Assembly: GCA_018873225.1 (NCBI GenBank) | Contig: JAEILZ010000005.1 | Span: 1,550,001-1,614,000 of the forward strand | From: [Phialemoniopsis] sp. UDSM-2020 | Taxonomy: Eukaryota; Ascomycota; Sordariomycetes; Thyridiales; Thyridiaceae | Direction: 5' to 3' | Length of the DNA: 64,000 nucleotides | Part shown: positions 2,512 through 51,661 of the stretch, in pieces | Numbering within the stretch: position 1 is the first letter of the stretch | Layout of the letters: every line of letters starts with the position of its first letter | The notes under the pieces: model-generated | Databases searched by the model: none | What the model was told of the DNA's origin: nothing | The model's input: the letters and a program-made list of their open reading frames with translations, nothing else | Program-made: the position numbers and the translations under genes

Positions 2512-5500
2512 TCAATCTCCCTCTTCGCCGTCATCCTCAGGTTGCTCGTCGTCCTCGCTCTCTGAGTCGCTGCTCGAGTCATCCGTGTCATCAAGCACGA
2601 TCACCTCGGGCACTTTCCCTTGTACTGTCGAGACCTCTTCCTGCTTGATATGCGGCTCTTTGGGCTCCGAGATCAAGCGCAGGTTGTCGAAAGTCATGTC
2701 CTCGGCAGAATTAGCCGCAGAATAGTTGATGGCAAACCGGTCCTCCCCGTCCTCGTCCTGCCAGCTGTCATCGAGCACCCTTGTGATCAGTTCTAGGCTT
2801 TGCAGGATGTCTTTCTTGCCTTGGAGCAAGGTTTGAGCAATGGTGTCCTTGCTCTTATGCAGCCGTTCAATGCCCTCGTCGATAGTGCCCTTGATCATCA
2901 GGCGGACAAAGTGACAAACTTTGTCTTGTCCGAGGCGGTAAACCCTGCCGAAGGCCTGGTTCTCCATGGCCCGGTTCCACCAGGGGTCCAGCATGATGAC
3001 CCTATTTGTGCAAGTTATGTTCAGTGCCTGTCCGCCTGAATGTAGACTGACAATCTAATTATACTTGTTAGTGACTCCAAAGTAAACCTTGCGCAATAAT
3101 TTCCGACTTACAAGCACTTTGCAACTCGACTGTTTATGAAACTTCTTCAGTGCTGCATCTTTCTGGAACGAATTTATGCTGCCGTTGAAATAGAGGAAGC
3201 CTAGGCCCTTGTTCAAGAGTGCCTGACCAAGGATTGCCATTGTGGCCTTCCACTGCGTGAAGACTACAAATACGTTAGTATGAAGCCCCTCAGTTCTATC
3301 TAGCTCGAAACGTACTGATGATCTTGTTGTCGGGTGCCTCTTGCTGCTAGCGTCGAACTATCTCTAGTGCAGCAGTGACCTTTGCACTGAGTTTGACAGG
3401 CCGGTAGGGGTTGTTATTATCGTCATTAAGAAGCTTCAACGAAGTGTGCGGTTGTATAGTGTAGCCGTTGGTGTCCAGCCCCTTTTTCTCCGGCTTTTTG
3501 CCTTTCTTGTTCTTTCTCCCTTTCTAAGTCCTTAAGTTGGCGGATTGTTTGGAAATAGCGTTGAAGTCACGGATGGAACTCTCGCTTATCGTCTATGAGG
3601 AAGTCTGACGGCAGATCGGGTACTGCAGCTGGTCATTCTCACCTCCAACCTGGGATCTCTATTTGTCCTCGAAGCATTCGTTGCAAAGGGAATGGGTGCA
3701 CTTTGATATTAGTACCTTTCAACAATCATATACGGTTTAGAGCAACTCTCACCTTGGCAACGCGGAGCTGAGGTGAAGGGAGAATGCATCGCGAATAAAA
3801 ACCCCGTTGTGCCTCATCTCGCAGGAGCTGACCGAATCGCTCCTGTTGCTCAGCGGACTGCTCGGCTGAAATGGTAGATTTTCTAGCCTTCCGGGGTAGA
3901 TGCTCCTGGAACATGAGATAATATATCCTCTCCAGCAGACGTAACGGGCAGTTGTGCTCTTGCGGTCCAGATGCAAGTGATGTAATGTAATCCTTGTCGT
4001 ATAGCTCCATGAAGAAAGCCTCGGGGACATAGGGATGTGCCGTTATCTGGCAGAGTCGACGGAAAGCAACCAGCAGTTGAGTGATGAGTTTGACGATCTC
4101 GTCTCTGATTCTCTCCTTCTCATCTTCGTCGAATACTTCTGCCATTTCCTTTTTCAATTTTGTCTTTTTGCGGCATATCTGGTCCATGTGTTTTTTGATG
4201 TCCCTAAACATGTCAGTAAGTATCAATAGAGTAAAGTCAAGAGCGTGTACTTGTATAGGATCTGCTCATCGACCGGCTGCTTAAGCCACTATGTCTGCGG
4301 GGGGTGAGGCTTGGGGATGTCCAAGATAGGTCTCCCCAGAAAAGTATCGGTTCTATAGCTTTGACTTAATTTAGCTTCTAAGCCTGGCCATTTTATAGAT
4401 CTAGAAAGCTTACCGCTTGAGCAGAATATCATTTAAGATGCGGTCTGTCTCCTCTAGTGCTTGGTACTGCTCCATAGGTCAGTTGATTTGGGTGTCGAAA
4501 GATTCGAAAACGGTTTGTATTAAGACGTACTTTTCCGGGGAAGCGCTCCTTGTGCTCCTTGTGATTCCGGGGCTAGCCCACGCCAATGAAGTTGAAGTAT
4601 GGATACAGATCTGCCTAACGTCAGGAGAGGTAATTAACTAAGCATTCAGATCTTATACCATCAACGATGTTCTGGATTGGCGTTCCCGTTAGAGCCTAGT
4701 GATACTTCGATCGCAATACGCGGCAGGCACGAGAAGCTACAGATGATAGTCAGTAATGGCTTTATGGCTTGATAGAAGAGAGGTCCTGACTGACTCTTTG
4801 TAGCCTTGTTCTTGATTTTGTGTGCTTCGTTGAGAATAACGCGTTGGAATTTGACCTTCAATAAAAGTATGCATTCCTTTCTATACTCTTTGAACCATAT
4901 CTGTCGATCATAATCAGGATGGTCAATATGGCGACCGGCATCCTCGCTTTTCGGAAACTGTCGCATGAGTTCTTTATATGTTGTGATGCTGGATCATACA
5001 ATTCAGTTAGAGAATGCCCAGCAATTAGAGATGCAAACTCATATAATGTTGGCTTTCTTGAGTATGTTTTTGTTGACCCCTAGTTGACTATCCTTGCTGT
5101 GGATGTGAATGATATATAACTCACGGTAGTGTCGATCGATCTCAGCCCTCTACTGCTTAAGTGCAGATGTAGGTACCACAAGTAAGGTGCCCATCAGGGC
5201 ATTGGCGCCCCTCTTTTCTGCTTTCTTTCGAGGATTGTTCATAATGCAGGTAAGGGTCTGCAATGTCTTGCCCAAGCCAGGGTCGTCGGCCAGAATACCC
5301 CCTCTTGCCTGCATGCGTTGCTTTGCCTCTGGTTTCTTCTCCTCTTCATCGGAATCCTCATCGGAATCTTCTGTAGGTTTCTTCGCCGAATGATCAGCCA
5401 GCTCTCGGCACAGCATCCATGCCGCGCCTACGACTTGGTGCGGATGAAGGCTGCTCTTCATGCCAGGGACATTGAAGGGGTTGCCTTTGTCTTTGTCCTC

Positions 5501-6466
5501 GGATATGGTGCATTTGTTCCGACCAAAGCTTGGAGCAGCCTGTCTCAGAGTGTCCGCGTCGTAGAGAACCTGCTCCAGGTTCTCGAGGTCTCCATTGCGT
5601 TCTTTGATTTCCTTGCGGATCCTACTCTTGACCATGGTATCCAGCGACCCGAGAAGCGGCACATCCGGCATCGCCGCTCTTGACGCAGCTATGCTTGTGC
5701 CTTGAAGAAGCTGGTCCAAGTTGGCAGTGGGTTGGGCCCGTTTTACAGTCGATGCTGTGCCGTCTTTGTTCTCGACTTTTTTCGGCCGATTGAAACCCTT
5801 GCATCGAGTGATGAACTTCCCTGCATAACCTGGCTTCTTGGACGTCCAGTAGTCCTGTGCATTGGCAACCTTCCGTGTCGAGGATTTGCCCTTGGCTCTC
5901 TTCTTCGAGTTACCGTAGTCAGAATCATCGCCGTTCCCCTGACCCTGTCGTGGACGCTTGCGACATTTGGCTTCTGGTGATCGGTTCTTGGCACCGGGCT
6001 GAACGGCCGGCTGCTGTTCCTGGCGCCGGGGGACATCCTTGGAAGCAGACGGTGGGTCTGGTGCAGACGAGGCAGGCTTTCCTGCCTGACCTGGATACGG
6101 CTGAACTGCTCCTAGCCGCACAGGTGAGGAGGCTCTCGGCTCCGGTTTGACCTTGCTTGTGTCTTCGCGGCTGTCTCCCACAGTATGAGGAACCTTAGGC
6201 TGCATTGTGGTGCTGCGATCGGCTGGAGGACTTCGATCTTCAAAAGCGGAGCAGGCTTTCTCAGGTTCTACCGACGGAGTGTCCTGAGTATTCTGAACAT
6301 TGTTGGTGTTACCACCATCAGGGATCGTGTCCATAGCTCGATGGGGCTCCTCGGGCTGCTCCGTCTTGACTTTGACCTGGGGTCGACGTTCCATCACCTT
6401 TTTATCACGCTTTATGATCTTGATCCGCGGTATTCTGGGTTTTGTCTTACCCTCAGCACCGTCCAT
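2512..6466 (-). pseudogene. SNF2-family helicase with RING insert, interrupted by eight in-frame TAG codons (decayed or RNA-edited)
   Basis: Ten exons on the minus strand: 6466-5043, 4988-4795, 4736-4659, 4610-4531, 4469-4414, 4352-4251, 4203-3753, 3700-3316, 3263-3112, 3054-2512. They join without frameshift into 1155 codons including the final TGA. The N-terminal third is a charged, disordered NLS-rich tail. The helicase follows: motif I GGILADDPGLGKT, motif II ILNEAHKIKN (DEAH expected), motif III ALTGTPIQN, a RING (SRC..CTHSLCNEC..PIC) between the lobes, motif IV KIIIFTQWK, motif V SLHSGGQALNIT and motif VI AFGRVYRLGQ. The tail is acidic. This order fits the Rad5/Rad16-type group of chromatin or repair ATPases. 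In-frame TAGs lie at 5150, 4696, 4573, 4289, 3659, 3593, 3524 and 3347 (lowest base). Intron 1 (4989-5042) starts AT rather than GT. Read literally, translation stops after 438 residues. The gene structure is well supported; whether it is functional is unknown. Confidence 0.8.
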
Positions 6467-7745: not shown

Positions 7746-8156
7746 TCACTCCTCAGTCTCAGTGGGTGCGGGCGGGAGAGCGACGGAGCGAGTGTGACTC
7801 GGCCAGTTGGTGGGGATGGGCACCGAGATGTGAGTCCAGGTCGGCAGGCCGGTGGGCCGAGTGTGGTGGCCGGTACCAGCAGGTCCAGAGGGGGTAGGCC
7901 TGGTGTGGTGGCCAGTGCCCGCGGGAGCAGAACCGGTCGGGCGGGTGTGGTGGCTCAGGGTGGGGAGCGGGACGGAGACGGTGGGCCAGGTGTGGTGGCC
8001 GGGTCCCTCAGGGGCCGTGTGAGAAGGACGAGGAGGCAGACCGGCAGGGCTCGTGGGCAGAGTGGGTGGGATCGGGAGCTCCGTGGTGGACACCGGGGCA
8101 GCTGCGGCTTGCTGCACGGCAACGGCCGCGATGAGGGCAAGGAGGAGACGAGCCAT
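7746..8156 (-). CDS. Small secreted His/Pro/Thr-rich repeat protein
   Basis: A single exon encodes 136 residues. The first 20 or so (MARLLLALIAAVAVQQAAAA) form a clear signal peptide. The mature part is almost all Pro, Thr, His, Gly and Ser. It carries a tandem repeat with core HHTRPT: HHTWPT, HHTRPT, HHTRPT, HHTRPT, the middle units spaced by GPAGTG-like linkers. There is no cysteine, transmembrane segment or known domain. I chose ATG 8156 because it starts the signal peptide; the frame is open further upstream but without a better start. Repeated His pairs could bind metal, and the Thr/Pro content suggests O-glycosylation at the cell wall, but both are inference. The coding part is much more GC-rich than the flanks. 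Confidence 0.7.
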   Translation of the reverse strand: MARLLLALIAAVAVQQAAAAPVSTTELPIPPTLPTSPAGLPPRPSHTAPEGPGHHTWPTVSVPLPTLSHHTRPTGSAPAGTGHHTRPTPSGPAGTGHHTRPTGLPTWTHISVPIPTNWPSHTRSVALPPAPTETEE

Positions 8157-9469
8157 TATGACAAGATACTGGTTTTGCCGAAGTTTGAGCTGTGATAGCG
8201 AAATAGAGACTTTCTGAAGTGCTTGTCGATGTTGATAGTGACGCCCAGAGAGCTTCACAGAAATCGACGAGCAGGCGACTGCAGCCTCTTTTATATCATT
8301 TGGATGGCGCGATACAGCCAAGTGATACGAAGACGTCTTGTGCCATTCTACCTCGACATGATTTCACCGCCGGACCTACAAGCCCCGTTCATGAGCAGAT
8401 CTCTTGGATTGAAGTTGTCGCCATTTCAAGGGATAGACGACGTAACGTCGGCCTTGCTACAGGTAGTCTTCGATGATCCATCTGGGTCTGCAACGTGACG
8501 TTTAATTTTCCAACGAATTCGTCAATATCATGATCAAAGGTAGAATCCTAAGCGAGGCATTTGGTGTCGCCGTCCGTGATCACGACAGTCCGGCCTGGAA
8601 CAATCTCCTTTTGCCGGCATTAATTACCACCACCCAATTCCCGGTTAGGCCACACATTGCATCGTGGGCAAGCAGACCCTTCCTGGTTTGGGCCAATTTA
8701 TCAGCCCCTGTTTGTTATTTATCTCGCACCGATACAAATTAGCTTCGACGCATCCATCTTCCCCCAACCCAGGGCAGCATTCCTAGTCCGGCCGTGTTTG
8801 AGCCGATGCCCTCCATTGGACTAACGATCCGTCTGGATTTTCCAATGCACGAATCAGGACGTCTTGATAGTTTCATGGTGACCAGCGCTGCACACAGAAG
8901 CTTTCATAGAATGCTTGGGTCATTTTAAGTGAGGAGGAGATCCTCATCTGCGGAACCGAGAACCGGGGGCTTGCCACCATATAGATCTGCGATCGCCAGA
9001 ATCTCCGCGAATAGGATATAGTTACGCGTCCGTTCCTGGGATATATGAGCCGTTTGAGGCTGATATTGCTTGGCAAATCATGATAACGCGCTTATGCGGG
9101 TCGACTGGCAGTTGATGAAGCCCCCGTCCGTGCATGGTTCCATGGTTCATCTCGACAGGGGTACCGGTATTCGTCCTACCCCAGTATCCTGATCAAGCTT
9201 TTCATGCAGGAGGTCTAGATTCGTCACGGACGGACTCGCATTCGACCCCGCACGTCATAAAGAGGAGGGTTGAGGAAATGAAGACCGACCTCTCCGCGAT
9301 GCCCAAGCAAGCGTTCTTCTGGCGGCCCAGGGGTATGCTCTGCGCGTCTCGGTGGCATGGCCAATTTTCCGCCGGCCCTATGCCATATTGTGGCAATGAC
9401 TGATGGCAGGTTGCTGCGAGACGGAGATGATGCGATAAGCGGAAAGATTGTCGACTTCGGTTACACCTC
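8157..9469. other. Intergenic region upstream of the secreted repeat protein
   Basis: About 1.3 kb with no convincing gene on either strand. Open frames near 8223-8498 and 8530-8742 lack start context, splice logic or recognisable motifs. It is probably promoter and spacer. Confidence 0.55.
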
Positions 9470-36482: not shown

Positions 36483-39400
36483 CTAAGCCTCGACACCGTT
36501 CACACCGTTCTCCTCGTGCTCACCGTCGACGCCGTTGCTCAAGCCCGCCGCCAGCGCCGCGCCACCGTCCTCCTGGTACTTGTCCCAGTTGGCCAGCACG
36601 TTGCCGATTCTCGGCGAGTTGGTCAGGCGGTACACATCCTCAAAGTACTCCTTGGTGAGCGCAAACGGCTTGGCCGTCACGTTGGGGATGTACTTGCCAA
36701 TAAGCTTGGCGGGATCGATGGTGGTCTTGTTGATCTTCTTGAGCAGGAAGGATCGGAAAGGCTTCACACCGCTGCGTAAGAAGGTCGAGTGGAAAGGCAC
36801 ATCGATTCCACGGAGGGGGATCGTGGCAAAGCCGCGTTGCAGCTCCACCGGCTGGGGCTTGGCCTCAGTCTGCTTCGCAGCACCCTGGATGATCTCGCGC
36901 AGGTGCTCCTTGACCTCGTCGATGGTGAGCTGAGATAGTAGTTGCTCAATGTCAATCTTCTGGACCTTGATGAAGTTGGTGACATTGGCCAGAGTGTCGA
37001 GAGCACGCAGGTCACCGGCGCACACGTATTGCATGTTGGCAATGTTGTAGTTGACAATCTCCAAGAGCCAGCCAGTCTCCTCGGCAATGCTGGAAACGAC
37101 GAAGCGCAGAGCCTCCTCGTTGAACGTCTTCGAGATGCGACTGGGGTTGACGGCGCACATCGAGTAGTTGGACCGGCCGCTGGCGTCGCGCTCCACAGCA
37201 ACTTGCATGGTGAGACCACGGTAGAAGACCACAGACACCAGGGACTCAATGGGCATGACATCAGCAAGAGCAGCCAATGCCGAGTATTCACCCAGCGAGT
37301 GACCAGCAAAGGTGCTGTCGCGAGGCACCAAGCCCTTAGCCTTCATGTCCTCAAAGCTGGCCTTCTCCATCAGAGTCAAGGCTGGCTGAGTGAACTGGGT
37401 CGCCGAAAGCAGACCAGTCGGCGACCGGTAAGTGTACGAAGGAGTCGACTCGGTGATGTCCTTGAAGATCTTCTCCGACTTGATAGAACCATCGGCGGCC
37501 ACAGTCTCAAAGGTCATGGCCATGTAGTTCTGTCTGATCGCCTTACCACGAGGGCCACCAAAGTGAATGGTGAGCTCCTTGGGGTTGTTCTTGACGATGT
37601 TCGTGATGGCGAAGCCTAGTAGAGTTAGTTAAGAACGACCAACAGTCGCGAGAAACAGTCATGAACGTACCATATGTGCTCATCAAATACTTGTCGGCGC
37701 GGTCCCAGACCTCCTTGGCCACAGGACTGCTGTTGTACAGGTCCATACCCATACCCTGCTCCTGAGAGCCCTGGCCAGTGAAGATGTAAGCAGTGATAGG
37801 CTGCTCAATCTCTGCCTCGCCCAGCAGGACCTTCTCCTCGCTGTCCTTGTTGCTGGCCTCGACCTTGATGATCTTGCGACCACCAATCATACCGACGTGC
37901 TGAAGCTTGACCTGGATATCGTCATTGGGCAGAACCATGCCAACTAGGTCAGCATGGAAGCTGCGCACACGGCCAACGTTGTTCTCTGCAGCCCATGTCT
38001 CGACGAGGCTGCGGACCGCAGCGCTCGAGTACATGCCGTGGGTGATGGTGCCGGGGAGGTCGGCATAGTTGGCAAAGACACGGGAGACGTGGATGGGGTT
38101 GTAGTCACCAGAGACACGAGCATACGTCTCATTTGAGGCGGGAGCGCGAAGGAGAAGGGGATCCTTGCCGCTCAACGGGATGGGGTTCTCAAAGTTGACA
38201 GGCTGCTCAATGGCGGATCCTTGTCTCTCCAGGTAGTCAATGACAGGGTTACCGTGAGAAGTGCCTGCCTCGTACTCAACACTGGCGACCTGGACGATCT
38301 CCTTGGTGGGGAGCTCAAGCAAGACTTGGCCCCGAGTCTCGACGCTGCTGAAGACAGTGCGGTTCTTGAACTTGACCAGAGACTGCAGACGGAAAGTGAG
38401 AGTCTGGCCGAGCAGCTCAACATCCTGTTGCTCATCAAGAACAAACCACTGCTTGGACCGCAAGACGGCAACATCCTTGGTGGTGGCAAGGTGAAGCTGC
38501 ATGGGCTTCTCGACCTTGCGCTGGAAGGTGTTCTCAAAGTCGGTGTATGCGCCACGGTAGAGGAACTGCGACGTGACCTCCATGACGGGCTCATTGTCAC
38601 GTGTAATGGTGCCGCACACCTCGACCATCTTGCCAGCTTCCTGGTTGATCACAGCATTGATCTGGGCAGTAGTCGAGACCTCATCGCCCTTCTTAAGGGG
38701 CTCAGCTCCAGGGATCATCCTGAACTCGTTCGACAAGTGAACCAGCTTCAGAAGATCACCGTCAATGGTCCGCGGGAAGATGGGCTTGGTGATAGCCTTC
38801 CATCCCACAACGATGGCGAAGTCCATGGGCGCATACGTGATCTTGCCAGGCCGTTCAACAAAAGCCTCGCCGGTGTTTCCAACGGCATAGACGAAGTCGT
38901 TGATAGCCTCGCCCGTGACAGTGGAGCTACCGCCGTCGAACTTGCCAGTGACCTGGGCATCCAGATCCAGCTTCTCGTCGGCGAACCAAGCACGCCAGTA
39001 GAACTCCTTGATGCGGTCATTGCGGCCCTCCATGATCTCGTGAATGGGAGCATATCCAGCCTCGGGCTTGTACGTAAATCGAAGCGGGAGGGCGACGGGC
39101 TTGCCAAGGGCAGTAGTGTCCTTGATCAGGTTGACCAGGATCTCATTCTTTCCGACGAGCTTGACGTTGATCACCTCGACGTACTGGTTGTGGCGGGGCT
39201 GCTCCTTGACAATGATCTCAGTCTTCTGAGGATTGTTCGGATGCCTGATCTCAACATACAGACCGCGAGCAGGAGCGAAGATCCTCTTCATCGGGTTAGT
39301 CTGGTACTTCTTGCCGTGGACAACCACCTCCGAGAGCAGCAAGGCGTGGCGCCAGCAAGGCTTGGGGCCAGCAAGAAGGTTCAACCAGGCCTCGACCGAG

Positions 39401-42400
39401 GGAGGCTGCACAGCCGGGGAAGATGACAGGCGGTAGATGTTCTTGTGCTCATCGTACGACTCAGTAAGTGCTTCAGAGTTAAGAGGAACCTCGCTCTCGA
39501 TCAGCTTGCCACCGAAGTACTCGATGGTGGGGATGAGAGACTCGTCACCCTGGTACTTGTCCTTGAGCAGGCTAGCGATGTGGGCTTCGTGGATGTTGTC
39601 AAGAATGCTCTTGACGGGCTCATCGATGACCGTGGAGAATTTGGCGGCCATGGGACCCTGGAGGACACACGTACGGCCCACGTCTTGGTCGACGATCGCA
39701 GCAAGGTCCTCCGACTGCCAGAGCGAATCCTTCTTGAAGTAGAACTCAAAGTTGGCGTCAAAAGCAGGGACAAAGTTGACTGGCTTTTGGATCGGGCGCA
39801 TGCATAGCATAAGGAAGTGCTGAACATCCTGGGCGTTGATGATCTGGGTCTCCGCCTCGGGATAGTGGGCAAGGATCCGCTCAACGGTAGAAAAGGGCTC
39901 GTGAAGGTCCGTGTAGTTTTGAAGAAGGGAGTGCTGACCCGGCTTGGATGTGAAGCGCTCCTCGACGCGGTGGATAAAGTCACCAGTGAGTCGCTCATAG
40001 GTGACGTCGATCCAGCGGTTCTCGTGCTTGACGTACATGAGCTCGACCATGCGGCGGACGACCTCACCATAGGTCATGTCCTCCAGGTCAACAGCCTCGC
40101 CAGCTTTGTTGCGACCAAACCAGGTCTTCTGGAAGTCCTCGTTGAGCCTCTTGATGTAGTAGTCTCGGTTTTTCTTGAGCTCAATGATGCGCTTCTCCTT
40201 GGGCAGGCTGAAAATCTTCTGATCCATCTCGGCCCAAAACTTGACACCACGGGTAGCGAGCTTGTGGATGGGCTCACCCATCTCGGATCGGACAGTAAGG
40301 ACACCTCCAGTGGGTGCCTTGTAGGTCTTCTCCCAGTCCTGATCCTCAACACCTTCGGCAGCGATAATGGCCTCCTTGGCAGCCTTGCTCGTGTGGGCCT
40401 CCTTGGCGACCATCATGCGACTGCCAAACAGGCAACCGTCGAAGGGCATGGGGGGATAGCCGTACTTCTTGGACCACTCACCCGTGATGTACGGGTAGGT
40501 GTCGTCAGAACCTCCGAAACCACTGCCGGCCACGAGGATAATGTTTGACCTGCGGCGGATGCGACCGTACATGTTGAGAATAGGCTGGTGGAAATCCTCG
40601 AATGAGTGATGACCACCGCCACGGCCTCCAGTCCACTGGAGGAAAACGGGGAAGGTAGGGTTTGCCTTGGCGATGTTGATGACGGCCTGGATTGCGTCCA
40701 TGGAGCCGGGCTTGAAGGAGATGTGCTTGAGACCAAGAGTCTGAATGTACTCCTGGGCAACCTCAATAGACGGCACACCAGCACCAATGGTGAGGCCCTC
40801 AATTGGAACGCCCTCTGCACGGAGACGGCCAATGAGCGGGATCTGCCAGGCCATGGCGGCAGGGTTGACGTAGATCAAGTTGACGCTGATACCCCGGCCG
40901 GCTGGGATGGCCTTCTCAATCTTGAGGAGGGCATCGGTCATCATGGGGCCCATGAAGTAACCGCCACCAGCGAGCTCGATCTGGTAACCAGCATTCATGG
41001 TGGCGGCAACGAAGTCCCATGGCACGGTTGCAGGAGTCATACCAGCCACGACGATGGGCGGAAGGCCGAGGACTCTGCTCATCTTCGTGTCGACATATGT
41101 GCGGCCACCAGTGGTTTTGACGAGTCTAGGGCCATGCTCGCGAACCCAGTCAACAGCGAACTTGACTGCGTTCTCCTCGTCTCTATCGAAGAGCTCGGGC
41201 TTGTAGCCGACCTCGGTGACGCTGCCGGACACGGAACCGGCAAGAATGACGCGGACACCGGTACCGTCCTTGTTTCGGCTGGTGAGGATACCCAGCCCAG
41301 AAATGCCACCAGGGCCGAAATCAAGAATGTGGGTAGCTCCGGGGAAGACAGTTGCCTTCTCCCAGTAGACCGGATCCCTGGTGATGAGGCGGATGAGGGT
41401 AGGGACGATATTGCCGTCAACCTCCTCACGGAGGTCTTTTCCGGTGTTGGTGTCAAAAACCGGAGTGCCCAGGTTCTTGGCGTCAATGCGAATGTCCTTC
41501 AGATCCTCGTCAATGAGAGCAGTAGCCTCCTTCAGGTACTGGCTGTGGAAGGGTGCCGTAATAGGCAGGAATCGGTTGACGAAACGGACTTTGCGCTCAG
41601 TGTGGGGAATTCGGTTCTGGTCGAGACCCGTGGGGGCCTTGACCTTGCGCAGCTGCAGGTTAAGACCGTACAGCGAAATGGGAGGGCCAGTCACCACGAG
41701 GTTGCGAGGGCTGTTGATCAGAGAGATGCTGATGTGACGATCAGGAGGGAGGTACTGGTTCGTGGCATCGATGTGCTTCTGGACCTCGGCCTGGGACAGA
41801 TCTCTAATGCTTAACATGGGTGTAGGAGTGCCCTCGCCGTTGTCGATAGAATCGCGGAGCATTGAGGGCGTAAGCGAAGTCCGGGGGAAGACTTGCTGAC
41901 TGCGAGTACCAATCCAGAAGAGGATGGTCAAGGCCGACTTGGCAATCTCGCCAAAGCTCTCCCACGAGTCGGCAGCGGCAGTCGCAGCAGCCATCACAAC
42001 ACCCTGGGAGTGACCGGTGGCACCGCGTATCCTCTCACGAAGGATACCAGGGTGAATACCGAGGACCTTGCAAGTGACTGCATAGTGGCACAGCTGAACC
42101 AAACCGATGAGGGGGAAGCTGACCGGGGCAGAGACAAGGTAGTCAAGATCGGGGGTAGTCTCGGGGTGACGCAGCCAGTTCATCACATCCAGACCCTTGG
42201 CGAAGAGCTTGACGGCGCTTGGCTCTCTGGAGAGATTCTGTAGCAGCTCGGCGGATGAGGCAACCGCGTCAGCAACAAATGAGGGGTAGGTCTCGAACAG
42301 CTCGCGGAGCTCCTCAAAGTACTCCTCAATGTTGCCCTGGCCTCCAAAGATGCTGTAGAGACTCGCTGAGCCGTCGTCCGCGGCTCTGAAGAGGGCCGAC

Positions 42401-42864
42401 TCGTGTGGCCTGATGCTCCGGTTGGTGACTGAGCGTGCTGCGAAGTAGCTGCGGATAACCTCGAGCTTCTTGGCGTCAATGCCAGGCAGGGTCGCCACCA
42501 AAGCATGCACCTCATTGCCCCGGAGGAAAGCGCGCTCAAACTCGTTCAGAATGAGCTTGAGGACCTCCTCGTATGAACCCTGGGCGTCGTCCTCGCCTTC
42601 TTCGACCTCGTGGGCCACAAAACCCATGTACCTGCCGACGAGCTCGGCAACAGATGAGGGCTCGTCATCCTGGGCGAGCTCATCCGTGGGAGCGGGCAAG
42701 CTGGCAGCGAAGCGCTCCTTCAGTTGGGAGGCATGGAAATGGAGGCTGGTGGGTACGAGGAAGGAGGTCTCGAGAGAACCATGGGAGATGGTCAAGGGGC
42801 GGAGAGACGCCGAAGACCTAGGTGTCGAGACACCGGTCTGCGGGCCGGTTCCGGTGCCGTACAT
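36483..42864 (-). CDS. FAS1: Fatty acid synthase subunit beta (FAS1)
   Basis: Two exons, 42864-37671 and 37615-36483 (intron GTACGT..TAG, phase 1), encode 2108 residues, normal for the fungal type I beta subunit. Domain order: acetyltransferase with GATGHSQG (catalytic Ser286), enoyl reductase with FMN-site motifs such as [13 protein letters not shown], dehydratase, the hot-dog segment around [18 protein letters not shown], and the malonyl/palmitoyl transferase that spans the intron, with [14 protein letters not shown] (Ser1838). The subunit joins FAS2 in the cytosolic alpha6-beta6 barrel making long-chain acyl-CoA. I chose ATG 42864 ([11 protein letters not shown]) because it is the conserved start; the frame is open upstream to 42942. 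Long open frames on the other strand are shadows of its codon bias. Confidence 0.97.
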
Positions 42865-45800
42865 TGCAAAGGGGGTATCGCTGTACACAAGTCTATGTTC
42901 GTGATGACTTGAGAGAGGAAGAGAGTTAGCTTCTTGGATCATCAGAGTCGGTGGGCAGGACTGGCGGTCCAGACATGTCGAACAGACTTACAAAAAGAAA
43001 AAGACTCCGAGTACTCAGCAAAGAGCAGGAGCCCGTTGTGGTACAAGTCTAGACTGCCTGGAATGGCAGCAACGCCTGATTTTAAAAGCCCAGGACGAAA
43101 GACAATTAGTTCTAGAGTGATTGATGCACTCCGTGATTCTCGAAGTGGTGGTGAGGGAAGGAAGAAAGCTGCCAGCCTTTGAGAGAGATGAAAAGGGACA
43201 GGCAGGAAGAGTGTGGGTGATGGAGGAGGGAAGATGCGACGAATAAGGTCAGGATAGCTTCAATTGACCTCGATGGACAAGAAAAGGAATTGGTTTCACA
43301 CTTTTTTTCGCTTTGCTTGTCACCAAACCCGACAAGTGATAGTAATCTTTTCGGATGGATGGCGATACCAAAAAGGGCCCAACAGTAAAATTAACCGACT
43401 CCCCCGACTGACGACCGACTGGGGGGGTAACGTAGCTCCCACCTCGCCAAAAATTTTAGTTTCTTGTTGGGGGAAGCTGTAATGCAGCTAATCCCGCTCG
43501 AACCATTGGATCCCTGTGGCGACGAGACCCCTAGTGGGTGAAATTTTGGGACAGGAGGGGTGGACGAGGATCCATGGATGGAGAATGGGAGGGCGTTTTG
43601 CTTTCCCAGGGCCCTTGCGTAGTGGTACAGCAGCCAAAAAGCAGGCACATCTGGACACGCCGGCCCTCCCACTAGCCCGTGTTGACCCGCCCTGGGGCCA
43701 GCCTGGAGGGTTTTCGACGTCCCCACCTCCCGCTGTTGCAGGTGCTGGGCTGGTGACAGCCAAGTACCGGTACTTACGGAGGCCGTTGTTGAGGCTGGTG
43801 AGCTTTGGACATGCAGCACAGGACGTTGGTGCAACACCACAAACTTCTATCGCGATCAAGACACAATGCTGCACTGCGTTCAACGGGAAGTGGATAGCTT
43901 GGCACTTCTGTATCCATTCCTGCTACCTGCTACGTGGTCGGTTCGGATTTACCCCAGACAAAGTCGTTTCTCCAGTCGAGCTCCGAGCGGAGTAAGAGGA
44001 AAGCGAGCCTTGCTCCCGACCTCTCAACCTCTCACCGTTCGTTCCAGTCGACATCGCTCAAAGTTACTAGAATCAGCCCGGACCCTGAAGAATCCCCGAC
44101 GCCTGGTACTCTTACCTAACCCAGGCGGACACTAGGATTAGTACTACCGAGCGATCACTCCTGCGGCAGTCTCCCGAGATGACCTTATCAGTGCCACACC
44201 TTGCTAACAAGGCGTAACGGGATCTAATCCATGTCTCGTATGTATAAGTGTATCACTCGCCTATCTTTTCAACGAATACAGGAGAGGATGGAAACTCCTA
44301 TAGTGAAAGTAAGATAGTTGTTTGACTTCTCAGTATCGACCAGTCCTTCACTGGTCCATGTGTAGGCCCGACTCTGAAAGCTTGATAACCCAACATTTGA
44401 TTGGAAGGCTTCTAGTAGCTATCAACTACAAGCCACATATGATTGCTACGTTTTCCTAGAGACGATGAGCTGAACGGTAAGTACCTTCGTAACTATCTTG
44501 AGTTTCAAGAAGGCTGGCTCTTCTGCAACAAGCGGACAATGCATAATACGCAAGCGTCGTATGCTCTACACCACAATCCTGACACCGTTGAACCTTGTGG
44601 GCACCATGTCCGTGTTGCGCTGATATCAATAATCTGAATAACAAGACGTTGAGCATGCGTTATCAACAATATGCGTCCATGCATTAGACTGATGACATCA
44701 GGAAGTGGTGGTTTCGGAGTGTTGGAGGACTGACAAGGTAGCTATACCTACGGCGACTCTCATCCTTACCATGGATACAGCTGGCGCCAGGAGCTACTGC
44801 AAGCTTAAGTTTGGGCACGACGTGTCTGGCCAGGTTCTTCGAGAAGGGAGGACCAGGGCAGGCTGCAGGCTGCATGATGGGGAAGTCTTGACGGGACGGG
44901 GGAACATGGCTCTTGTTCTTTCGAGGATACTTACCTTCCTGGGCGAGAAGTCGGACAGGATCACATAACCAGAAAATAGAGAGTAGCCTAACTTGCTTCA
45001 TATGCATTGGTAGAAATGTAAGCTGATCAATCAATCCATAATTCCAGTTGATGATACCGTGTTTCGATTATTCGCTGCGGTTGGGAATGACGGTGTGTGG
45101 TGGTGGTGACACTTTGAGTTCACCAACAATGGAGAATCGACCAGGTCCCGGAGGTACCGGTACCAGTACCGGCTTTGATAGCGCATCGAATAAAATTCCA
45201 GCTGGCCTTCCAGTGGACGCAGAAGCCCATCATCGCTGCTTGTGGGGTAAGACCCCTGGGCAGGCCATACCGCATGCGTGCTAGCGCGACCAGTTTGGTT
45301 GAGGAGCAGTGGCAGCTTTGGTGCAATCTGGCAGGGGTGGCGCATCGTTCAACAGTTGTTGGAAGCTCTCGACTTTTTTTCTCTTGTCCACCACCCCTTT
45401 GCGAGGTACCAGGATCTGCCGCCCCAAAAAAAGTCAATGGGACGACTCTGATATCACCAATCCCTGAAATCTGCACTCGGGAAGTGAACCGGGTGGAGAG
45501 AAGGCTCTGTTTTGTCCCTTTTTGCAAAATCTCCTTGGGGAATCCAGACACTACTTCCACCCTTCCACACACCAACACACCAATTGACCGGTCCGTTTCT
45601 TCCCCAACCCGTCAAACTCCGCTTCTTCCTTCTGTCCGCTGCTGCTTCTTCTTACCAGGCAGCTTCAGGTCTTGTCTTCTTACCTGTTTTCTTCCCTCCC
45701 TTCTTGTAACATCCTCTCCTCCTATCAACCTCAAGAGTTTGAGTAGACGCGACCCTTCCTCTACTCGCTCTTTCAACACTCCAACCCACCTACCTGCCCG

Positions 45801-45943: not shown

Positions 45944-48900
45944 ATGAGGCCCGAAATCGAGCAGGAGCTCGCGCACACGCTGCTCGTTGAGCTGCTCGCC
46001 TACCAATTCGCCTCCCCCGTCAGATGGATCGAAACCCAGGATGTCTTCCTTGCCGAGAAGCTCGCTGAGCGCATCGTCGAAATTGGTCCCGCTGAGACCC
46101 TTGGTGTCATGGCCAAGCGGACACTCGCCTCCAAGTACGAAGCCTATGATGCCGCCAAGTCGGTGCAACGACAAATCCTATGCTACAACAAGGACGCAAA
46201 AGAGATCTACTACGATGTGGACCCGGTCGAGGAGGAGCCAGAGCCCGCCGCCGAGGCTTCGTCAAGTTCTGCCCCGGCTGCCACGGCCCCAGCTGCTGCT
46301 GCTGCTGCTCCGGTAGCTGCCGCACCAGCGCCGAGCGCCGGACCTGCCGCCCAGGTTCCCGATGCTCCTGTCCAGGCCATTGAGATTGTCCGGGCTTTGA
46401 TTGCCCAGAAGCTCAAGAAGCCGTATCTCGAAATCCCACTCAGCAAAGCCGTGAAGGACTTGGTTGGTGGTAAGTTGAACACCTGACGCTGCTATTTCGA
46501 GGTGGCGTTATACTAATTGTCTTGCCTACAGGTAAATCAACACTGCAGAACGAGATCTTGGGCGACCTTGGCAAGGAGTTTGGCTCCACCCCCGAGAAGC
46601 CGGAGGATACGCCTCTGGATGAGCTCGGTGCGGCGATGCAACAGACCTTCGACGGAAACCTGGGTAAACAGTCACAAGCCTTGATCGCGCGTCTTATCTC
46701 ATCAAAAATGCCCGGTGGCTTCAACATCACAGCTGCCCGAAAATACCTGGAGACAAGGTGGGGTTTGGCTTCCGGCCGCCAGGATGGTGCTCTTCTGCTC
46801 GCCATCACCATGGAGCCCGCTTCGCGTCTCGGCTCTGAGGCCGATGCCAAGGCTTTCTTGGACGATGTTACGCAGAAGTACGCAGCCAATGCTGGTGTCT
46901 CGCTCTCCACGGCCGCGGCTGCAGGCCCGGCCACTGGTGGTGGTGGCGGTATGATGATGGACCCCGCCGCCATCGACGCCCTCACCAAGGACCAACGCGC
47001 TCTGTTCAAGCAGCAGCTCGAGCTACTCGCACGCTATCTCAAGATCGACCTGCGTTCCGGAGACAAGGCTTTCCAGGTCTCGCAAGAGTCTTCCAAGATC
47101 CTTCAGTCTCAGATCGACCTCTGGGTCGCTGAGCACGGTGACTTCTATGCCGCCGGTATCGAGCCTGTGTTCAGCCCACTCAAGGCTCGGGTCTACGACT
47201 CTTCCTGGAACTGGGCTAGGCAGGACGCTCTTAGCATGTACTACGATGTCATCTTCGGCAGGCTCAAGGCTGTTGACCGAGAGATCGTCAGTCAGTGCAT
47301 CCGCATCATGAACCGTTCCAACCCTACTCTGCTCGAGTTTATGCAGTATAACATTGACAACTGCCCTACCGAGCGTGGCGAGACTTACAAGCTTGCCAAG
47401 GAGCTCGGTGTCCAGCTCATTGAGAACTGCAAGGACGTGTTGAACGAGGCCCCCGTCTTCAAGGATGTTGCCGTCCCTACTGGACCCCACACTACCATTG
47501 ACGCTCGTGGCAACCTGAGCTATGAGGAGATACCTCGCCCTAGCTGCCGCAAGCTAGAGCACTACGTGCAGCAGATGGCCGAGGGCGGCAAGATTTCCGA
47601 GTATGGAAACCGCACTAAGGTGCAGAGCGATCTCTCTCGCATCTACAAGCTCATCAAGCAGCAGCACAAGCTGTCGAAGACCTCGCAGCTTGAGATCAAG
47701 TCCCTTTATGCTGATGTTCTCCGGTCCCTGGCTATGAATGAGAACCAGATCATTCCCAAGGAGAACGGCAAGGCCAACGGTGTTGCTAAGCGAAGCGGCC
47801 TGAAGGCAAATGGAACCGCCGCCAAGGGCAAGGTCGAGACTATCCCCTTCCTGCACCTCCGTAGCCAATCGCTACACGGCTGGGACTACAATAAGAAGTC
47901 GACCGGCCTGTACCTTGATTGCTTGGAGCAGGCTGCTCGCTCTGGCGTCAGCTACCAGGGCAAATACGTCCTTATGACTGGAGCCGGTGCCGGCTCCATT
48001 GGTGCCGAAGTGCTCCAAGGTCTCATCAGCGGCGGTGCTCACGTTATCGTCACAACCAGCAGGTACTCGCGTGAGGTTACCGAGTACTACCAGGCTATGT
48101 ACGCCAGGTACGGTGCCCGGGGCTCGCAGCTCATCGTTGTTCCCTTCAACCAGGGTAGCAAGCAAGATGTTGAGGCTCTGGTCAACTACATCTACGACGC
48201 CAAGACAGGTCTTGGCTGGGATCTTGACTACATTGTACCATTCGCTGCCATTTCGGAGACTGGTCGCCAGATTGACGGTATCGACTCGAAGTCTGAGCTG
48301 GCTCACAGGATCATGTTGACCAACCTCCTGCGTCTCCTTGGTTCCGTCAAGACTCAGAAGGCTGAGCGCGGCTTCGAGACCCGCCCAGCACAAGTCATCC
48401 TTCCCTTGTCACCCAACCACGGCACCTTCGGTAGTGACGGTCTGTACTCCGAGTCCAAGCTCGGCCTGGAGACCCTCTTCAACAGGTGGCACGCCGAGGA
48501 CTGGGCTGATTACCTGACCATCTGCGGAGCTGTCATTGGCTGGACCCGTGGCACTGGCTTGATGTCCGGCAACAACATCGTTGCTGAGGGCGTCGAGCGT
48601 TTCGGTGTCCGCACATTCTCTCAGCAGGAGATGGCTTTCAACCTTCTGGGTCTGATGTCTCCCGCTATTGTAGACCTGTGCCAGACACAGCCGATCATGG
48701 CTGACCTGAACGGTGGTCTGCAATTCATCCCCAACCTTAACGACGTCATGACCAAGCTTCGCAAGGACATCATGCAGACTAGCGAGGTCCGCCAGGCCGT
48801 CAGCAAGGAGACTGCTATCGAGAACAAGATCGTCAACGGCGCCAACTCTGAGACTCTCTACAGAAAGAAGGTCGTCGAGCCCCGCGCGAATATCAAGTTC

Positions 48901-51661
48901 GACTTCCCCAACCTTCCTGACTGGAAGACCGATGTTGAGCCTCTCAACGACAATCTCAAGGGCATGGTGGACCTCGAGAAGGTGGTTGTTGTCACTGGCT
49001 TCGCCGAAGTCGGTCCTTGGGGTAACGCTCGCACGCGTTGGGAGATGGAGGCTTACGGCGAGTTCTCCCTTGAGGGCTGTGTCGAGATGGCCTGGATCAT
49101 GGGTCTCATCAAGAACCACAACGCTCCCATCAAGGGCAGACCTTACTCTGGATGGGTCGACGCCAAGACTGGCGAGCCCGTCGATGACAAGGACATTAAG
49201 CTCAAGTACGAGAAGTACATTCTGGAGCACTCCGGTATCCGTCTGATTGAGCCTGAGCTCTTCGACGGTTACGACCCGAACAACAAGCAACTGCTGCACG
49301 AGGTTGTCATCGAGGAGGACCTTGACCCCTTCGAGGCTTCCAAGGAGACCGCAGAGGAGTTCAAGCGTGAGCACAAGGACAAGGTTGAGATCTTCGAGAT
49401 CCCAGAGAGCGGCGAGTACACTGTGCGCATGAAGAAGGGTGCCGCCCTATGGATCCCCAAGGCGCTGCGCTTCGACCGACTCGTTGCTGGTCAGATCCCC
49501 ACCGGCTGGGACGCCAAGCGCTATGGTATCCCAGACGATATCATCTCCCAGGTCGACCCTGTCGCCCTCTTTGTCCTCGTTTCTACTGTGGAGGCTCTCC
49601 TCTCCGCTGGTATCACCGATCCTTATGAGTTCTACCAGTACGTCCACGTTTCAGAGGTCGGCAACTGTGTCGGCTCTGGTATGGGTGGTGCTGCTGCTCT
49701 CCGTGGCATGCACCGTGACCGCTTCCTTGACAAGCCTCTTCAGAACGACATTCTTCAGGAGTCCTTCATCAACACCATGTCTGCGTGGGTCAACATGCTT
49801 CTGCTCTCGTCCTCCGGACCTATCAAGACGCCAGTCGGTGCTTGTGCCACTGCCGTCGAGTCTGTTGATATCGGTTACGAGACCATCATGGAGGGCAAGG
49901 CCCGTGTGTGCTTCGTCGGTGGTTTCGATGACTTTGGCGAGGAGGGCTCGTACGAGTTCGCCAACATGAAGGCCACCAGCAACGCCGTCGATGAATTCGC
50001 TCACGGCCGTACTCCTAAGGAGATGTCGCGTCCTACTACCACTACCAGGAATGGTTTCATGGAGTCGCAGGGTTGCGGTGTTCAGGTCATCATGAATGCC
50101 AAGCTTGCACTTGACATGGGTGTTCCCATCTATGGTATCCTGGCCCTGACCACTACTGCCTCCGACAAGATTGGCCGCTCAGTCCCTGCTCCTGGCCAGG
50201 GTGTCCTCACCACTGCCCGCGAGAATGCTGGCAAGTTCCCTTCGCCGCTGCTCGACATGAAGTACCGTCGCCGCCAGATCGAGCTGCGCAAGAGGCAGAT
50301 TAGTCAGTGGAAGGAGTCTGAGCTGGAGTACCTGTCCGATGAGGTTCAGGCCATCAAGGCTCAGAGCCAAGAGGGCTTTGATGAGAAGTCTTACGCTGCC
50401 GACCGCGCCCACCACATCGAGAAGGAGGCTGCCCGGCAAGAGAAGGAGATGCTCCGCGCTCTGGGCAACAACTTCTGGAAGGGTGACAACACTATCGCCC
50501 CTCTCCGTGGTGCCCTGGCTACCTGGGGTCTTACCATTGACGACCTCGGAGTTGCTTCCTTCCACGGTACCTCGACCAAGGCCAATGACAAGAACGAATC
50601 TTCCGTCATCTGCCAGCAAATGGCCCACCTTGGTCGCAAGAAGGGCAATGCCGTTCTCGGTATCTTCCAGAAATACCTCACTGGTCACCCCAAGGGTGCT
50701 GCTGGTGCCTGGATGATGAACGGCTGTCTGCAGGTTCTCAACACCGGCCTGGTCCCCGGTAACCGCAATGCCGACAATGTCGACGAGGTCATGGAGAAGT
50801 TTGACTACATTGTCTACCCCAGCCGCAGCCTGCAGACCGATGGCATCAAGGCGTTCTCCGTCACTTCGTTCGGTTTCGGACAGAAGGGCGCCCAGGCCAT
50901 CGGTGTCCACCCCAAGTACCTCTTTGCTACCCTCGATGAGCAGACCTACCAGGCATACTGCGCCAAGGTCAATGCCCGCCAGAAGAAGGCCTACCGCTAC
51001 TTCCACAACGGCATGATCAACAACAGTATCTTCGTGGCCAAGGCGAACGCACCCTACAGCGAGGAGCAGCTCAGCTCGGTGCTGCTGAACCCTGACGCCC
51101 GTGTCACCCAGGACAAGAAGTCGGAGCAGCTCACCTTCCCCAACAACTTCATGAAGCTCTCTGAGAAGACTATCCCTGCTGCTGAGCAGAAGTCGACCGT
51201 CGAGAAGCTCCACGAGATGGCTGCCCGGCTCGAGACCAAGAACAACAAGGTTGGGATTGACATCGAAGACGTCAATGCCATCAACATTGAGAACGACACC
51301 TTTGTGGAGCGCAACTTTACCAAGCGTGAGGTCGAGTACTGCAGCAAGTCTCCCAACCCCCAGGCTGCATTTGCCGGACGCTGGTCCGCCAAGGAGGCCG
51401 TCTTCAAGTCCCTTGGCGTCGCCAGCAAGGGCGCTGGCCAGCCTCTGAAGGACATTGAAATCCTGAGGAACGAGCATGGTGCTCCCACTGTCTCTGTAAG
51501 TCGACCCTGAATGTCAAGTAACTATTACAATCTGCTGACTCGCCATCTAGCTCCACGGCGATGCTGCTGCTGCCGCCAAGAAGGCTGATGTGAAGGAGGT
51601 GAACGTTTCCATCTCGCACTCTGACAGCCAGGCCATTGCCATTGCTGTCGCTACCTTTTAA
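45944..51661 (+). CDS. FAS2: Fatty acid synthase subunit alpha (FAS2)
   Basis: Three exons, 45944-46469, 46532-51495 and 51551-51661, encode 1866 residues, the usual length. Domain order: N-terminal part of the transferase, an Ala/Pro-rich linker (residues about 100-140), acyl carrier protein with [11 protein letters not shown] (phosphopantetheine on Ser178, formed across intron 1), ketoreductase with [17 protein letters not shown], ketosynthase with [10 protein letters not shown] (Cys1280), [12 protein letters not shown] and [11 protein letters not shown], and the C-terminal phosphopantetheinyl transferase with [10 protein letters not shown] and [14 protein letters not shown]. All catalytic residues that I can place are intact. 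With FAS1 it forms the cytosolic synthase barrel. The last intron falls in the transferase domain and the final exon adds only 36 residues. Confidence 0.97.

What the first reader, a model, noticed from the sequence alone, without database searches (positions are those of the whole stretch)
2512..6466. Ten-exon SNF2/RING gene with eight in-frame stops, all TAG: candidate for fruiting-body A-to-I mRNA editing, or strand-biased RIP
Seen directly: the exons join with no frameshift over 1155 codons. Inside are eight stops, all TAG and none TAA or TGA (lowest bases 5150, 4696, 4573, 4289, 3659, 3593, 3524, 3347). At least three replace a Trp expected in the family: SALKQ(W)RAEIDRH, SKYH(W)ALTGTPIQN and EIVRR(W)QQEAPDNK. 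Other TGG codons in the gene are intact (TQWK, DPWWN). Established: Sordariomycetes such as Fusarium graminearum (gene PUK1) and Neurospora edit A to I in mRNA of perithecia, favour UAG, and so restore UGG Trp from genomic stops. Inference: this gene may only be translated in full during sexual development. The rival view is one round of RIP acting on one strand (TpG to TpA) followed by loss. Against heavy RIP: no indels, many TpG left in the same exons, and no TAA.
Basis: partly seen in the sequence, partly recalled or inferred. Interest (0 to 1): 0.9.

Follow-up and report, generated by a model that had tools for sequence, protein, structure and literature searches.

The report
SNF2 helicase gene with eight TAGs
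A fungal DNA-helicase gene keeps its reading frame but carries eight internal TAG stop codons, a changed active-site motif and a damaged splice site; it looks most like a recently mutated dead gene, although the fungus probably has the RNA-editing system that can read TAG as an amino acid in fruiting bodies.

Summary
The eight in-frame TAG codons are real, and no TAA or TGA lies inside. The gene is a divergent SNF2 helicase of ten exons; no second copy was found. Trp is the residue of relatives at two stop sites (8 of 8 and 3 of 8 rows), and at codons 578 and 912 in 0 of 8.

All eight stops lie in a TpA-rich stretch (codons 431-952), more extreme than in 33 control ORFs. Third-position TpG to TpA is raised there; CpA to TpA is not. 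One round of RIP on the template strand would do this and make only TAG stops, so 'all TAG' does not favour editing.

The genome is nevertheless probably editing-competent: a kinase reads D-TAG-WS like the edited N. crassa PUK1 ortholog, and an Ame1-like gene is present. No fungal ortholog or RNA data could be reached. Best reading: RIP-type pseudogene (0.5); edited gene 0.22.

The parts
2512..6466 (-). SNF2/RING-type helicase gene, ten exons: 6466-5043, 4988-4795, 4736-4659, 4610-4531, 4466-4414, 4352-4251, 4203-3753, 3700-3316, 3263-3112, 3054-2512; terminal TGA 2514-2512
   Evidence: 3462 nt, divisible by 3; Pfam pieces
5153..6466 (-). open part of exon 1 (438 codons), no stop; SNF2-rel_dom begins at codon 343, Walker A GGILADDPGLGKT at 5302-5264
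   Evidence: (PF00176 3e-11)
5150..5152 (-). in-frame TAG, codon 439; Trp in 8 of 8 aligned relatives
4696..4698 (-). in-frame TAG, codon 553 (before ALTGTP); Trp in 3 of 8 aligned relatives
4573..4575 (-). in-frame TAG, codon 578; Trp in 0 of 8 aligned relatives
4289..4291 (-). in-frame TAG, codon 631, followed by an intact TGG
3659..3661 (-). in-frame TAG, codon 808, beside the RING-like motif
3593..3595 (-). in-frame TAG, codon 830
3524..3526 (-). in-frame TAG, codon 853, before a Lys-rich linker
3347..3349 (-). in-frame TAG, codon 912; Trp in 0 of 8 aligned relatives
4989..5042 (-). intron 1 whose donor reads ATGAGT instead of GT; the other eight introns are GT-AG
   Evidence: alternatives
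4808..4831 (-). Walker B motif, NEAHKIKN; Asp in 8 of 8 aligned relatives at the first position
3611..3797 (-). RING-like cysteine pattern YSRC ... CTHSLCNEC ... QYPIC with Tyr at two expected Cys positions (judged by eye; Pfam RING match only E 0.07)
3176..5175 (-). stretch rich in TpA on the coding strand (codons 431-952) that holds all eight stops
   Evidence: (5000 shuffles, p 0.0008; 0.005 without the TAG codons, then codons 431-753)
2929..3337 (-). Helicase_C domain, unbroken
   Evidence: PF00271 3e-18; best solved relative RAD5, 6l8n, 2.4e-21

Best explanation
The locus is most likely a recently inactivated SNF2/RING helicase gene. A clustered C-to-T event of RIP type struck mainly the template strand over about 2 kb (about 5175 to 3176). 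On the coding strand this reads as TpG to TpA. The only stop that such change can make is TAG, from TGG; it also changed silent sites and probably one splice donor (shown: the stops, the TpA stretch, the AT donor; inferred: the ancestral bases, the RIP enzyme, the lost partner copy). The Walker B difference (Asn for Asp) would also be G to A, but in a CpG context. The product would be a 438-residue fragment without a working motor. If the fungus edits UAG in fruiting bodies, some stops may be read as Trp there, but that is not shown.
For: TpA stretch at codons 431-952 holds all eight stops: shuffle p 0.0008, and 0.005 with the TAG codons left out. With parameters scaled to each sequence the gene gives p 0.0018, below all 33 control ORFs (lowest 0.017). 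Third-position NTG to NTA: 23 of 44 in codons 439-912 against 16 of 63 outside, p 0.008; NNC|A to NNT|A: 20 of 83 against 23 of 116, p 0.49. Against the longest open frames of 47 own-genome loci (some overlap): silent NTA p 0.0075, ATA p 0.00016, NNT|A p 0.59. 31 CAG/CAA codons in the stretch are intact, with no TAA. RIP is active in this genome: 2 of 5 reverse-transcriptase matches carry 5 TAG + 8 TAA and 3 TAG + 6 TAA, no TGA, at GC 0.12-0.26; DNA-methylase matches have no stops. In N. crassa about 91.9% of RIP clusters are purely one-strand (PMC7296669, passages). Further damage: AT donor, NEAH.
Against: No second copy in the genome by DNA, and exon 1 as protein has only one short other match, though RIP needs a duplicate. 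RIP seen elsewhere in this genome is very heavy and on both strands, unlike here. N. crassa coding sequence is rarely RIPped (PMC7296669 section 13). Strand asymmetry is not clean: a TpA/CpA scan with own-rate parameters is also significant (p 0.008; lowest of 33 controls 0.019), so the flat CpA result came partly from its parameters. Silent sites alone inside the gene give p 0.075, and 1 of 45 other ORFs has as high a silent NTA share (L020). In-frame TGG/TAG sites are TAG more often (8 of 11) than out-of-frame ones (8 of 22), p 0.07, which pure RIP does not predict. No indels over 1153 codons.
Confidence: 0.5

Rival explanations
1. The gene is a working sexual-stage gene: Tad2-Tad3-Ame1 edits each UAG to UIG (read as Trp) in fruiting bodies, as in PUK1, and full-length helicase is made only there.
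For: All eight stops are TAG and the frame is otherwise open. The genome looks editing-competent: a kinase with D-TAG-TGG-S at the DWWS site, the arrangement edited in N. crassa NCU03242 (PMC4817773 section 16), and two DUF726 genes, one with Met-Val about 30 residues before the GxSxG Ser like Ame1. Codon 439 is Trp in 8 of 8 aligned relatives. In-frame TGG/TAG sites are TAG more often than out-of-frame ones (8 of 11 against 8 of 22, p 0.07).
Against: Walker B is NEAH; the first A of that Asn codon follows C, and C at -1 makes up only 1.25% of F. graminearum sites (PMC4817773 section 13). Intron 1 lacks a GT donor. The UAG As are not significantly more often in hairpin loops: mean probability 0.24 against 0.35 for 111 UAGs of other genes (p 0.73) and 0.16 for 15 out-of-frame UAGs of the same mRNA (p 0.29); by minimum energy 2 of 8 with 30-nt flanks, 4 of 8 with 20-nt flanks; the kinase site itself scores 0.18, so this test is weak. 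Trp is not the residue of relatives at 578 and 912. Third-position sites changed too. No match with two or more stops, all TAG, among 137 kinase, 102 P450, 43 SNF2 and 9 MFS matches; these lists are capped, and the screen would miss genes cut up by introns, this one included.
Confidence: 0.22
2. An ordinary pseudogene or fast-decaying gene whose stops are all TAG by chance and by base composition (A-rich coding strand; many CAG, GAG and AAG codons).
For: The gene departs from 43% of the columns conserved in at least 7 of 8 relatives both inside codons 439-912 (16 of 28 match) and in codons 913-1153 (17 of 30 match), so constraint may be loose. P(all TAG) is about 0.003 under random mutation, not negligible for a selected finding. 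In-frame TAG could also come from CAG, GAG or AAG.
Against: No frameshift in 1153 codons, eight of nine introns with intact ends; a localised TpA stretch.
Confidence: 0.2
3. A dispensable gene kept as a truncated 438-residue product, the downstream part being unused.
For: Exon 1 is open and carries Walker A.
Against: It ends inside the SNF2 domain, without Walker B or Helicase_C, and the downstream exons still join in frame.
Confidence: 0.05

Closest known systems
PUK1 / stk-21 (NCU03242) and the about 70 premature-stop-corrected (PSC) genes of Fusarium graminearum
   Same: In-frame TAG stops in a gene with an otherwise open frame, in a genome that seems to belong to the editing lineage
   Different: Eight stops instead of the one or two in the cases described in the sections I read; Walker B and splice-donor changes; no RNA evidence; hairpin preference not seen
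OLD-ZAO / CHE1 hyphal PSC editing (Neurospora, Fusarium)
   Same: UAG corrected to UIG by a deaminase; four OTT_1508 deaminase matches in this genome
   Different: Known targets are zinc-finger factors beside the deaminase gene; this helicase lies on contig C7 and the four deaminases on C4, C6 and C9
RIP-inactivated genes of Neurospora and relatives
   Same: Clustered CpA-context C-to-T changes, usually on one strand per round, which can produce TAG; RIP clearly active here
   Different: No duplicate copy found; light change in a gene of near-normal GC
Rad5-like SNF2-RING helicases
   Same: SNF2 domain, RING-like motif between the helicase lobes, Helicase_C; best solved match RAD5
   Different: About 26-35% identical to own-genome paralogs over the longer matches, divergent at conserved sites, Walker B and RING altered

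Membership tests
PSC-edited (PUK1-like) gene | In-frame UAG within an otherwise open coding sequence | tested here: met
   8 TAG, 0 TAA, 0 TGA inside 1153 codons
PSC-edited (PUK1-like) gene | Stops stand where homologs encode Trp | tested here: inconclusive
   Trp at codon 439 in 8 of 8, 553 in 3 of 8, 578 and 912 in 0 of 8 rows; the other four sites do not align well and show no Trp; rows are paralogs, not orthologs (8 of 13 extracted sequences used)
PSC-edited (PUK1-like) gene | A-to-G mismatch in fruiting-body RNA, absent from genomic DNA | not testable with these tools
   no RNA reads available
PSC-edited (PUK1-like) gene | Stop conserved in related species | not testable with these tools
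   the protein collection gave 0 hits and 1 distant unnamed hit; this genome has no relatives in the genome tool
PSC-edited (PUK1-like) gene | Editing-competent lineage | tested here: met
   kinase with TAGTGG at DWWS as in NCU03242; two DUF726 genes, one with Met-Val before the Ser; by pattern only, no tree; editing itself not observed
PSC-edited (PUK1-like) gene | Edited A in hairpin loops | tested here: inconclusive
   no significant enrichment against either control set, but the presumed positive site also scores low (0.18)
PSC-edited (PUK1-like) gene | Protein otherwise able to work | tested here: not met
   NEAH for DEAH (Asp in 8 of 8), intron-1 donor AT
RIP-mutated gene | Clustered C-to-T change in CpA context | tested here: met
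   inferred from composition, without an unmutated ortholog
RIP-mutated gene | One strand per round of RIP | tested here: inconclusive
   third-position sites and stop types say one strand; the CpA scan is also raised
RIP-mutated gene | Duplicated target sequence | tested here: not met
   only the self match by DNA; a heavily mutated partner would escape this search
RIP-mutated gene | RIP active in the genome | tested here: met
   (two reverse-transcriptase loci at GC 0.12-0.26, TpA/ApT up to 1.8, no TGA in the matched parts)
SNF2 helicase | SNF2-related domain and Helicase_C | tested here: met
   PF00176 in two pieces (3e-11, 2.1e-11), PF00271 3e-18
SNF2-RING subfamily | RING finger between the lobes | tested here: inconclusive
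   RING match only E 0.07 on a piece cut at a stop; Cys/His spacing judged by eye

The most novel reading that the evidence does not exclude
RIP-made stops masked by RNA editing: a one-strand RIP hit on the template strand turns coding TpG into TpA, which in mRNA is exactly the UA context that the sexual-stage Tad2-Tad3-Ame1 editor prefers. RIP and this editing both act in the sexual stage, so editing could soften one-strand RIP damage and let a struck gene be translated in full in fruiting bodies. This gene, with eight TAGs, would be such a case.
Probability: 0.1. Interest if true: 0.9.

Novelty: new member of a known kind. Interest (0 to 1): 0.45.

Why it matters
If the gene is dead, it is a clean example of how one-strand RIP mimics an editing target: such a hit can make only TAG, so 'all stops are TAG' cannot by itself be used to call premature-stop-corrected genes. 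If the gene is edited, it would need far more stop corrections than the cases described in the sections and passages I read, and it would link RIP and RNA editing, two processes of the same life stage. One RNA-seq data set from fruiting bodies would decide between them.

Tried and rejected
Ortholog searches failed: exon-1 piece 0 hits at 1e-8, C-terminal piece 1 distant unnamed hit that looks bacterial. A search for a second copy found none. Of three other SNF2 matches with a single TAG only, I looked at two (L016, L017); in both the TAG is in what reads as an intron. Of five kinase matches with TAG-only stops, one (L044) is in an exon; the other four look intronic by eye. Three P450 matches with one TAG and one DUF726 match with one TAG (L059) were not examined. 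I looked for zinc-finger (ZAO-like) genes beside the four OTT_1508 deaminases and saw none convincing in the short flanks held. The whole-locus TpA scan was confounded by introns and was redone on the CDS; its CpA control used parameters too high for CpA, so one search repeated both with own-rate parameters, and there the CpA scan is also significant. Literature searches were made; of these 34 and 69 bear on RIP together with editing, and I saw no report there (listings, and passages of some papers) of RIP damage masked by editing. Only open-licence papers are held.
Full report
What is there. On the minus strand, 6466 to 2512, ten exons join in one frame to 1153 codons plus a terminal TGA. Pfam finds an SNF2-related domain in two pieces (3e-11 and 2.1e-11) and Helicase_C (3e-18); the RING match is weak (E 0.07), though the Cys/His spacing between the lobes is RING-like. 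The best solved relative of the C-terminal piece is RAD5 (2.4e-21). The DNA search of the 44.2 Mb genome returned only the gene itself, and exon 1 as protein matched only one other place, 38 residues at 50%. Own-genome paralogs are about 26-35% identical over the longer matches.

The intron-1 donor reads ATGAGT, while the other eight introns are GT-AG; the 15 listed joins from canonical donors that keep the frame all lose 21 or more codons. Walker B reads NEAH, where 8 of 8 aligned relatives have Asp. Two Tyr codons stand where the RING pattern expects Cys (by eye). Of columns conserved in at least 7 of 8 relatives, 16 of 18 match in codons 331-438, 16 of 28 in codons 439-912 and 17 of 30 in codons 913-1153, so the C-terminal part is divergent too.

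Are the stops at Trp sites? The alignment held eight of the 13 sequences extracted: seven own-genome paralogs and P0001, a distant unnamed protein. Codon 439: Trp in 8 of 8; 553: 3 of 8; 578 and 912: 0 of 8; the other four sites lie in linkers that align poorly and show no Trp. The claim of three Trp sites is therefore supported for two.

Mutation pattern. On the coding strand, TpA is concentrated at codons 431-952 (5175 to 3176): shuffle p 0.0008 on CDS alone, and 0.005 over codons 431-753 when the eight TAG codons are left out. With parameters scaled to each sequence the gene gives p 0.0018, and the lowest of 33 control ORFs gives 0.017. At third positions, NTG to NTA is 23 of 44 in codons 439-912 against 16 of 63 outside (p 0.008), while NNC|A to NNT|A is 20 of 83 against 23 of 116 (p 0.49). 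Against the longest open frames of 47 own-genome loci the stretch is high in silent NTA (p 0.0075) and ATA (p 0.00016) but not in NNT|A (p 0.59). The stretch keeps 31 CAG/CAA codons and has no TAA. This fits C-to-T change in CpA on the template strand. Limits: silent sites alone inside the gene give p 0.075; one of 45 other ORFs has as high a silent share; and the CpA scan with own-rate parameters is also significant (p 0.008; lowest control 0.019), so one-strandedness rests on third positions and stop types.

RIP in this genome. Two of five reverse-transcriptase matches carry 5 TAG + 8 TAA and 3 TAG + 6 TAA with no TGA. Their loci have GC 0.20-0.26 and 0.12-0.19, with little CpA or TpG left on either strand. 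DNA-methylase matches are present without stops. In N. crassa parent-offspring sequencing, about 91.9% of RIP clusters are exclusively C-to-T or exclusively G-to-A on a strand (PMC7296669, passages); the same paper says coding sequences are rarely hit (section 13). A template-strand hit can create only TAG, so the absence of TAA is no argument against RIP. The difference in stop types from the heavily RIPped loci (TAG:TAA 8:0 against 8:14, p 0.003) shows only that this gene was not hit heavily on both strands.

Editing context. Of 137 kinase matches (capped list), five have TAG-only stops, and one of these has the TAG in an exon: GRCD-TAG-WSIGVILYECLYGHTPF, DNA GACTAGTGGAGC. PMC4817773 (section 16) describes UAGUGG in the kinase domain of N. 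crassa NCU03242, edited to UGGUGG in perithecia, which matches. Two DUF726 genes occur; PMC11087585 (passages) places a duplication of Ame1 orthologs in the ancestor of Sordariomycetes and Leotiomycetes and names Met-Val 500-501 as essential. One copy here has Met-Val about 30 residues before the GxSxG Ser, one residue off the published spacing. So the fungus probably edits, by pattern and without a tree. For this gene the hairpin test shows no significant enrichment: mean probability 0.24 against 0.35 for 111 UAGs of other genes and 0.16 for 15 out-of-frame UAGs of the same mRNA; 2 of 8 by minimum energy with 30-nt flanks, 4 of 8 with 20-nt flanks; the kinase site scores 0.18. In-frame TGG/TAG sites are TAG more often than out-of-frame ones (8 of 11 against 8 of 22, p 0.07); this leans to editing or to chance.

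Papers seen: PMC4817773 outline and sections 12, 13, 14, 16 and part of 18; PMC11156358 parts 1 and 2 of 3; PMC12754623 part 1 of 3; PMC7306014 passages and section 7; PMC7296669 passages and section 13; PMC11087585, PMC11169179, PMC6505168, PMC10294615 and PMC12543289 passages only.

Verdict. The stops are real and not random. The better-supported origin is a RIP-type, mainly one-strand hit that also changed silent sites and probably a splice donor; the Asn at Walker B adds to the case for a dead gene. Whether the fungus still reads some stops as Trp in fruiting bodies is untested.

Noticed in passing
L044 (G000:C1:4066000-4070500, minus strand): Kinase gene with an in-frame TAG at the first Trp of the DWWS motif (TAGTGG), the arrangement of the edited N. 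crassa PUK1 ortholog; likely a conserved edited stop in this genome.
   Followed up: partly
L038 (C9:691284) and L040 (C11:3013085, near the contig end): Reverse-transcriptase loci at GC 0.12-0.26 with little CpA or TpG left on either strand: very strong RIP. Only five RVT_1 matches were found in 44 Mb.
   Followed up: yes
C4:3511730, C6:3655494, C9:2656555, C6:4332752: Four OTT_1508-type deaminase matches (OLD-like); no clear zinc-finger neighbour in the short flanks seen.
   Followed up: partly
L057/L060 (C5:3853316-3854433) and L058/L059 (C1:8507983-8509042): Two DUF726 genes; the C5 copy has Met-Val about 30 residues before the GxSxG Ser, as in the editing cofactor Ame1. The C1 copy has one TAG within a match (L059), not examined.
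   Followed up: partly
window 37543-42987 (-) and 46474-51510 (+): Divergently placed long open frames that look like fatty-acid synthase subunits (recognised by eye, not scanned against a library).
   Followed up: no
window 7746-8363 (-): Short protein with Pro/His-rich repeats of a GHHTRPT type; the DNA holds three copies of a 49-nt repeat at 7850-8027.
   Followed up: no
whole assembly: 5.8S rRNA was not found by family search (39 of 1270 candidates scored) or by an exact pattern, so the rDNA may be missing from the assembly.
   Followed up: partly
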